A stretch of DNA of 36,648 bases, from contig JAIULZ010000027.1 in the NCBI GenBank assembly GCA_022565805.1, positions 1-36,648 on the forward strand. Reading direction: 5' to 3'. Under the pieces are notes generated by a model. The model had not been told where the DNA came from. It worked only from the letters and a program-made list of their open reading frames with translations, and searched no databases. Made by a program: the position numbers and the translations under genes. Source of the DNA: Balneolales bacterium. Its GTDB lineage: Bacteria; Bacteroidota; Rhodothermia; Balneolales; Cyclonatronaceae. Shown here one piece after another: positions 20,087 to 21,696 of the stretch (its first letter is position 1; each line of letters starts with the position of its first letter).

Positions 20087-20272
20087 GGGCTGATCAAAGA
20101 AATAGGAAGCCGGGATAAATATGAATTAATGCGAAATAAATACGTGCTGGAATTGCAAATTTATGAGCGCAAAATATACGTAAACAGTCTTTATCCCAAA
20201 GTAGTTTTTCTGTAAAAGCTATGACTACGATTCATACATTTTTAGGAACGAGCTGGACTCGCACATCCCAAA
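20087..20272. other. Spacer before the left direct repeat
   Basis: This AT-rich spacer lies between the SGNH gene start and the left copy of the 210-bp repeat. It contains no ORF and no recognised site. Confidence 0.4.
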
Positions 20273-20482
20273 TTTTTGCCCAAGCTGAAGCATAGGCTTA
20301 GCAGATTTTGTTTCTGTGTTGTGATGGGTTTCTTGGCCTTAAATTATTTCTGGCCAGATTCGAGCTACCGAGGCTCAGAGGTTGATTGCGAAATTATGGG
20401 CCCGAATCAAGCTGAAGCAAGATTCGGGGAGGAGGTTTTTCCGTTACTATGCTTCATCGTTTAAATGGAAAATTCCGTAGCG
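20273..20482. repeat. Left copy of a ~210-bp direct repeat flanking the toxin-antitoxin pair
   Basis: This copy starts with TTTTTGCCCAAGCTGAAGC and ends near GTAGCG. By eye it agrees with 21238-21446 at about nine positions in ten, over the full length and in the same orientation. It contains GCTGAAGCATAGG (20284-20296) near its left end and an imperfect reverse complement of it (20446-20458) near its right end. A CCCGAATCA...AGATTCGGG hairpin also lies inside, with one mismatch compared with the right copy. A 62-codon TTG-start frame inside it is broken in the other copy by a 1-base deletion, so the element is read as non-coding. Confidence 0.88.
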
Positions 20483-20584
20483 CCGAGCTGCGAGATGGCG
20501 CTAATTTTCAAGCACGAGTTAAACATATTTTTTTCAAATTCTGTAAGAATACTCCCTTTTGGTATTTCATGATGTATAAGTTTT

Positions 20585-20599
20585 GTACATTATATATAC
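20585..20599. promoter_or_regulatory. Possible operator/promoter site of the toxin-antitoxin operon
   Basis: The imperfect palindrome GTACATTATATATAC lies about 20 bp before the antitoxin start, in a very AT-rich stretch. Phd/YefM-type antitoxins repress their own operon by binding palindromes at such positions. The palindrome is imperfect and partly a consequence of TA-richness, so this is a tentative call. Confidence 0.3.
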
Positions 20600-20619
20600 A
20601 TTTAAAAATATAAATCATT

Positions 20620-20913
20620 ATGCCCACAGTACGAATTGAAATAGACCAGGATATTCAGCCACTTTCTGAGTTCAGAAAACATGCGGCTGATTTTATTGAG
20701 CGAATCAAGGAGCAGAAACGTCCTATTGTTTTAACTCAACACGGAAAAAGTGCCGCTGTTTTAATGGATGTGTCCGAATATCAGCGTATGGTTAATAAGA
20801 TCGATTTAATGGAAGAGCTGATCGAAGCAGAAAGACAAATTTCAAGAGGAGAAATTGTATCTCATACCGAAGCCAAAAAGCAGATTAAAGAAAACCTGAG
20901 CAAGTGGAAATAG
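20620..20913 (+). CDS. Type II antitoxin, Phd/YefM family
   Basis: This antitoxin (97 aa) should neutralise the downstream toxin and repress the operon. The N-terminal half has the Phd/YefM fold signature, with LSEFRKHAADFIERIKEQKRPIVLTQHGKSAAVLMDVSEY around residues 15-53 (beta-alpha-alpha-beta DNA-binding and dimer core). The C-terminal half (about 55-97) is charged and helical, as expected for the toxin-binding tail. It overlaps the toxin start by 10 bp, the usual coupling in such pairs. The pair sits between two direct repeats. Confidence 0.92.
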   Translation: MPTVRIEIDQDIQPLSEFRKHAADFIERIKEQKRPIVLTQHGKSAAVLMDVSEYQRMVNKIDLMEELIEAERQISRGEIVSHTEAKKQIKENLSKWK

Positions 20914-21209
20914 TCTGGACAAATCAGGCATTACAAAAGCTCAACAAGTTTGTCGACTATATTGCCCGGGATGATGTAGCCATTGCTGAAAAGTGGGCAT
21001 TGGAAATAATAAACAAAACGGATCAGCTTTTAGAGCAACCAGAATTGGGGCGTATTGTGCCTGAATATAATGAGTCAAGTTTGCGTGAATTGATTTTAGG
21101 CAACTATCGGGTGATTTACCGGATACGTAAAGAGGTAAATACGATCTATATTCAGACTGTTTGGCATGTCAAGCAGTATCCACCTAAATCGAAATCGGGC
21201 TTGCGTTAA
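20904..21209 (+). CDS. Type II toxin, RelE/ParE family
   Basis: This toxin (101 aa) has the compact RelE/ParE fold: an opening WTNQALQKLNKFVDYIARDD helix pair, then PELGRIVPEYNESSLRELILGNYRVIYRIR and a last strand, IYIQTVWHV. The RELILGNYRVIYRI block is typical of ParE/RelE-superfamily proteins. Classical RelE toxins cleave ribosome-bound mRNA and ParE toxins poison gyrase; sequence alone does not choose between them, though the overall pattern is nearer ParE. The start is GTG at 20904, inside the last codons of the antitoxin, which makes translation coupled. The right repeat begins 28 bp after the stop. Confidence 0.9.
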   Translation: MEIVWTNQALQKLNKFVDYIARDDVAIAEKWALEIINKTDQLLEQPELGRIVPEYNESSLRELILGNYRVIYRIRKEVNTIYIQTVWHVKQYPPKSKSGLR

Positions 21210-21237
21210 CAAGTACATCAATCAGAACAGAGTAAGG

Positions 21238-21446
21238 TTTTTGCCCAAGCTGAAGCATAGGCTTAGCAGATTTTTTTCTGTGTTGTGATGGCTTTCTTGG
21301 CCGCAAATTATTTCTGGTCAGATTCGCGCTACCGGGGCTCAGAGGTTGATTACGAAATTATGGGCCCGAATCAAGCTGAAGCATGATTCGGGGATGAGTT
21401 TTATTCGTTCCTATGCTTCAGCGTTTGAATGGAAAGTTTCATAGCG
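21238..21446. repeat. Right copy of the ~210-bp direct repeat
   Basis: This copy is about 90% identical to 20273-20482 by eye and lies 965 bp further on. Its internal symmetry is better kept: GCTGAAGCATAGG (21249-21261) is an exact reverse complement of CCTATGCTTCAGC (21410-21422). A perfect 9-bp hairpin, CCCGAATCA (21365-21373) and TGATTCGGG (21384-21392), has a loop containing the same GCTGAAGCA word. The 13-mer CAAGCTGAAGCAT occurs twice (21246-21258 and 21372-21384). No target-site duplication or transposase was seen. Confidence 0.88.
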
Positions 21447-21696
21447 TGGTGCTTTAGCCGGCGTTCATCCGGTTGTGTCGATTCGGGTTAAAAGCCTTTT
21501 TTGCTTGTCTGTAATATGAATTGCCAAAACTGAGTAGAAGAATTCGGGTTTCGCATCCGAATGTTTAGGTTAAAGGAACTGTTTCTGACAGTCGTGTATT
21601 GTTCTTCAATTGGTTGATGTATCAATACCTGAAATATGCGCCATAGCAATGTTATTATTTCATAAACGGGACTCATCCGCTCACTCAGATTATTTT
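21447..21696. other. Leader region of the photolyase operon
   Basis: These 250 bp between the right repeat and the photolyase start hold no gene I can support. An in-frame extension of the photolyase back to 21610 exists, but the added residues are not family-like. The promoter of the two-gene repair operon is presumably here. Confidence 0.45.

What the first reader, a model, noticed from the sequence alone, without database searches (positions are those of the whole stretch)
20273..21446. Toxin-antitoxin pair enclosed by two ~210-bp, ~90%-identical direct repeats
A complete Phd/YefM-RelE/ParE operon lies between two long repeats in the same orientation, 965 bp apart. No transposase or integrase is adjacent and no target-site duplication is seen. 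Such an arrangement could loop out by homologous recombination or could be a mobile cassette. The addiction module would protect the repeat-bounded segment from loss, or the repeats could be how the module entered.
Basis: partly seen in the sequence, partly recalled or inferred. Interest (0 to 1): 0.62.

Follow-up and report, generated by a model that had tools for sequence, protein, structure and literature searches.

The report
Stranded integron toxin-antitoxin cassette between repeats
A small toxin-antitoxin gene pair in this Balneolales genome is a leftover integron gene cassette whose recombination site is truncated; the two long repeats around it belong to a hairpin repeat family seen only in this genome, and nothing found shows that they move it.

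Summary
In detail: 20273-20482 and 21238-21446 are direct repeats, 91% identical, 965 bp apart, around an intact Phd/YefM-ParE/RelE operon. Five syntenic relatives lack repeats and operon, so this is an insertion. The suggested mechanism is not supported. The repeat has 23 BLAST matches in its own genome, mostly beside ordinary genes; its loop motif is at background in 59 relatives. It is a mosaic of hairpins with a nearly invariant 12-nt loop on covarying 8-bp stems, resembling REP/BIME repeats without their GTAG or CGTC tag. The pair is best read as a stranded integron cassette. Its 5' edge (GTTAAAC, 20518) aligns with the cassette edge in 11 relatives; its stop codon lies in GCGTTAACAAG, the attC start, as in relatives where an attC follows. 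Here attC is cut off there. The genome has other attC sites, including a TA-rich array on C129, but no integron integrase over cut-off; 10 of 18 relatives searched have one. Unexplained: the only two gene-sized gaps found between full repeats both hold toxin-antitoxin pairs. Whether the cassette landed in a repeat cluster or the repeats came later is open.

The parts
20251..20504 (+). Repeat copy R1 (core 20273-20482): mosaic of hairpins of the genome-specific repeat family
20401..20428 (+). Hairpin 2 of R1: stem CCCGAATC/GATTCGGG, loop AAGCTGAAGCAA (one change from the family loop)
20518..20524 (+). 5' border of the integron cassette: core-site-like GTTAAAC, 102 bp before the antitoxin ATG, aligned with GTTAACGC in relatives
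20584..20600 (+). Palindrome TGTACATTATATATACA in the conserved promoter region; operator role inferred, not tested
   Evidence: sequence; TTTTGTACATTA conserved in relatives
20620..20913 (+). Antitoxin gene, Phd/YefM family (97 aa)
20904..21209 (+). Toxin gene, ParE/RelE family (101 aa, GTG start overlapping the antitoxin end)
21203..21213 (+). attC remnant GCGTTAACAAG containing the toxin stop codon; in relatives the same bases open an attC site
21238..21475 (+). Repeat copy R2 (core 21238-21446; right end approximate), same orientation as R1
21365..21392 (+). Hairpin 2 of R2: stem CCCGAATC/GATTCGGG, loop AAGCTGAAGCAT

Best explanation
The toxin-antitoxin operon is a former integron gene cassette (about 20518 to 21213) that reached this intergenic site after this lineage split from its congeners and then lost most of its attC site; the genome now shows no integron integrase over cut-off, so the cassette is stranded. 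The repeats on either side are copies of a dispersed, genome-specific family of hairpin repeats (REP/BIME-like) that does not match the integron sites. Shown: repeat identity, empty sites in relatives, cassette borders shared with relatives, attC directly behind the same toxin gene in several relatives, attC sites but no integrase over cut-off in this genome, stem covariation. Inferred: that integrase action brought the cassette here (capture into an array or off-target insertion), and that the repeats accumulated independently, either before (cassette landing in a repeat cluster) or after.
For: Cassette: the toxin stop codon lies in GCGTTAACAAG; read by eye, the same start (with small changes) opens an attC ending in GTTA in G009, G027 and G047, and in named, mostly Balneolales, records a covariance-model attC starts within 20 bp of the toxin end in L253, L246, L249, L251, L245, L252, L241 (E 4e-17 to 0.03) and weakly L257. 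The 5' edge aligns in one column in the window and 11 relatives, with no evident homology to its left; chance of GTTAA at 98-106 bp from the ATG is 0.02 by shuffling. The attC model gives 10 matches in this genome at E<=1, on C231, C82, C55, C66, C6 and C129, the last also holding the genome's two other ParE matches. Integrase over cut-off in 10 of 18 relatives searched, including a congener, none in this genome. Insertion: five relatives keep SGNH and photolyase-related genes adjacent, with 117-568 bp between first aligned residues against about 1650 bp here (from coordinates). Repeat family: motif 47 times against 1 for the reversed control and at most 4 per relative; the 29 relative loci checked have no more than 5 of 8 stem pairs; here 277 of 328 stem cells are paired against mean 194, maximum 225 in 2000 arm shuffles.
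Against: No attC is detected in the window itself, even without filters; only about 11 bases of it remain, and the 5' border alone is modest evidence. Several relatives of the pair (e.g. G058, G003) show no attC directly behind the toxin, so the gene pair also persists outside arrays. The repeats lie 13 bp and roughly 25 bp from the two cassette borders, and a second repeat pair on C2 also encloses a toxin-antitoxin pair, which independent accumulation does not explain. Base-exact junctions could not be defined.
Confidence: 0.77

Rival explanations
1. The repeat pair is the mobility device: a repeat-TA-repeat composite unit that moves or loops out by homologous recombination between the repeats, with the addiction module protecting the segment.
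For: Two direct copies in the same orientation, 965 bp apart; a second locus, C2, has direct copies 976 bp apart around a HigB/HigA pair.
Against: Most copies lie beside ordinary genes with no TA cargo; empty sites hold no repeat; R1 and R2 are hardly closer to each other (87% over aligned columns) than to an unlinked copy on C274 (85% each), so they do not look like one recent duplication; relatives of the TA pair carry integron-type borders instead.
Confidence: 0.1
2. The repeats target or replaced attC sites: they inserted into the cassette's own attC and the preceding attC, so they occupy the array's recombination-site positions.
For: R1 ends 13 bp before the 5' border and R2 begins shortly after the attC start, which is where the two attC sites of an array would lie; attC is truncated there. 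The C2 pair is arranged similarly, and a HigBA homologue in G010 is the first cassette beside its integrase, with attC at 13511-13602 of L220.
Against: None of the contigs with attC matches (C129, C231, C82, C55, C66, C6) appears among the repeat matches; no attC border could be shown for the C2 pair; most repeats are in places without recognised cassettes.
Confidence: 0.1
3. The TA pair arrived by some other route and the border similarity only reflects ordinary conservation of its promoter and stop region.
For: No detectable attC in the window; some homologues have no attC directly behind the toxin.
Against: Homology among relatives begins at the GTTAA-type edge and the sequences to its left show no evident similarity; the shared bases past the stop codon open attC sites in several relatives.
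Confidence: 0.1

Closest known systems
Toxin-antitoxin cassettes of sedentary chromosomal integrons and CALINs
   Same: Two-gene TA unit with its own promoter region, core-site 5' border, stop codon inside the start of attC; genome has attC arrays without a recognised integrase. TA cassettes and CALIN formation by off-target insertion or integrase loss are described (PMC8618304); TA-rich arrays in halophiles in PMC7923331.
   Different: Single, not in an array; attC truncated; enclosed by dispersed hairpin repeats.
Off-target cassette insertion at attG sites (Loot et al. 2024, known here only through its citation in PMC12444791)
   Same: Cassette sitting in an ordinary intergenic region away from an integron.
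   Different: Actual insertion event not reconstructed; no junction at base level.
REP/BIME repeats, GTAG and CGTC superfamilies (PMC3733652)
   Same: Dispersed, intergenic, species-limited palindromes (28 nt here) with complementary stem changes, singly, in inverted pairs and in clusters.
   Different: No GTAG or CGTC tag at the stem foot; the nearly invariant part is the 12-nt loop; hairpins sit in a mosaic unit of roughly 200-330 bp.
Atypical secondary structures beside subclass 2.6 TnpA-Y1 genes of Bacteroidetes (PMC6006769)
   Same: Hairpin repeats with copies elsewhere in the genome; this genome has three Y1 transposase matches.
   Different: No Y1 match lies on a contig with this repeat; two of the three sit beside other hairpin repeats.

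Membership tests
Integron gene cassette | 5' core site at a border shared with homologous cassettes | tested here: met
   GTTAAAC at 20518 aligns with GTTAACGC-type edges in 11 relatives; shuffle probability 0.02
Integron gene cassette | Complete attC site after the gene | tested here: not met
   Only GCGTTAACAAG remains; no covariance-model match near it with filters off
Integron gene cassette | Homologues of the same pair are attC-bearing cassettes elsewhere | tested here: met
   G027, G009, L246, L253 and others
Integron gene cassette | Integron integrase in the genome | tested here: not met
   No TIGR02249 match over cut-off in this genome, 98.95% complete; absence now does not exclude a past integrase
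Type II TA, Phd/YefM antitoxin with ParE/RelE toxin | Both families recognised in one overlapping operon | tested here: met
Type II TA, Phd/YefM antitoxin with ParE/RelE toxin | Toxicity and neutralisation | not testable with these tools
   needs expression assays
REP (GTAG/CGTC) | Short palindrome with covarying stem, multicopy, mostly intergenic | tested here: met
   41 distinct hairpins, 8-bp stem, strong covariation; positions
REP (GTAG/CGTC) | GTAG or CGTC tag at the stem foot | tested here: not met
   Not a shared feature of the flanks of the 41 hairpins listed, read by eye
Repeats as attC sites | Match to the attC model of the order | tested here: not met
   No match at R1, R2 or the C2 copies

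The most novel reading that the evidence does not exclude
The hairpin repeats are mobile elements that preferentially enter or replace integron attC sites, so that repeat pairs bracket former cassettes in place of the attC pair.
Probability: 0.1. Interest if true: 0.62.

Novelty: new member of a known kind. Interest (0 to 1): 0.4.

Why it matters
It shows how an addiction module that looks like a repeat-bounded unit can instead be a relic of integron activity, found by comparing cassette borders across relatives. It adds a case of TA cassettes persisting in a genome without a recognised integrase, and a hairpin repeat family whose loop, not its stem, is conserved and whose maintaining enzyme is unknown.

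Tried and rejected
Integron attC identity of the repeats themselves: no model match. Rfam: nothing over gathering in the window; one weak match (RgsA, 17.7 bits against 88.4) in C2, taken as chance. Repeat in other organisms: an exact 20-mer was not found in the genome or viral collections, which may leave out this genome. Empty-site test at C2: synteny downstream of htpG is not conserved in congeners, so not informative. A first attempt to find attC by duplex energy was noisy and was dropped; a first alignment with one site reversed was redone. In one search flanks of loci matched on the minus strand were read in the wrong direction; redone. PADLOC: no match. Simple promoter and terminator scans: not above shuffles.

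Full report
Observation. The two repeats and the operon are as described: 20273-20482 and 21238-21446 are 91% identical over 210 bp in the same orientation, and the operon between them is intact. The window is one whole contig (C27) of a 4.47 Mb, 290-contig genome, 98.95% complete.

The repeat is a dispersed family. BLAST gives 23 matches in the genome, many at contig ends, so the true number is probably higher. Neighbouring ORFs are mostly not toxin-antitoxin genes (this is my reading of the translations, not a family search). Units are mosaics of hairpins. The hairpins are related copies, so the shuffle is a control and not a strict probability. The motif occurs 47 times here, once for the reversed control, and at most four times in any of 59 relatives; the 29 relative loci inspected have at most 5 of 8 stem pairs. 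R1, R2 and a copy on C274 form one subfamily, with R1-R2 at 87% and each at 85% to C274 over aligned columns.

The insertion. In G002, G003, G004, G005 (same genus) and G009 the SGNH gene and the photolyase-related gene are neighbours, with 117-568 bp between their first aligned residues (coordinates), against about 1650 bp here. The intergenic sequences printed show neither the pair nor the repeat.

The pair is an integron cassette. Downstream, the toxin stop codon is embedded in GCGTTAACAAG. In G009, G047 and G027 nearly the same bases open an attC-like site ending in GTTA. A covariance model built from nine attC sites of relatives finds sites directly behind the same toxin in named, mostly Balneolales, records; one of these (L253) is the same contig as a site used in the model, so it matches by construction. 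Upstream, homology among the window and 11 relatives starts at a GTTAA-type edge, 102 bp before the ATG in the window and roughly 90-115 bp in the others. Some G-handle genomes and named records are the same sequences, so the two surveys overlap. In this genome the model gives 10 matches at E<=1, with an array on C129 that holds both other ParE matches and other TA-like ORFs by eye. No integrase over the cut-off is found in the genome, while 10 of 18 relatives searched have one.

How it most likely came about. A TA cassette was inserted here by integrase action, or is the last member of a former array, and its attC was later truncated. The order relative to the repeats cannot be read from the data: repeats form clusters elsewhere (e.g. 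C2), so a cassette landing in a cluster would give the present picture, as would later arrival of repeats. The cassette has GC 0.37 against 0.46 for its neighbours, in keeping with acquisition.

What remains odd. Among the loci examined, only two have two full repeats separated by a gene-sized gap, and both hold TA pairs: this one and a HigB/HigA pair on C2. A HigBA homologue in G010 sits between its integrase and an attC, so the C2 pair may also be a former cassette, but no border could be shown for it. With two cases, and with many repeat copies cut off at contig ends, chance is not excluded.

Literature. TA pairs as integron cassettes and the formation of CALINs by off-target insertion or integrase loss are established (PMC8618304, PMC7923331, PMC12444791). 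Palindromic REP families are sorted by GTAG or CGTC tags (PMC3733652), which this family lacks; atypical hairpins beside Y1 transposases are reported in Bacteroidetes (PMC6006769).

Noticed in passing
L212 (G000:C129:1-10000): attC array without integrase containing several TA-like ORFs and fragments that look like a broken group II intron reverse transcriptase (by eye).
   Followed up: partly
L024:5400-5994 (G000:C2): HigB/HigA pair between two direct copies of the same repeat, 976 bp apart, with further partial repeat units in a cluster beside it.
   Followed up: partly
L186 and L187 (G000:C111, C236): Y1 transposase genes with other hairpin repeats beside them, different from the repeat studied here.
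   Followed up: partly
L220 (G010:C4:1-13663): HigBA homologue lying between an integron integrase and an attC site, as a first cassette.
   Followed up: partly
L255 (JADEXJ010000299.1): The same TA cassette, 78% identical, on a 3.6-kb low-coverage contig labelled Pleurocapsales cyanobacterium; transfer or contamination.
   Followed up: no
G005:C1:753005-753517: Partial integron integrase match (positions 1-170 of 315), possibly a decayed integrase in a congener.
   Followed up: no
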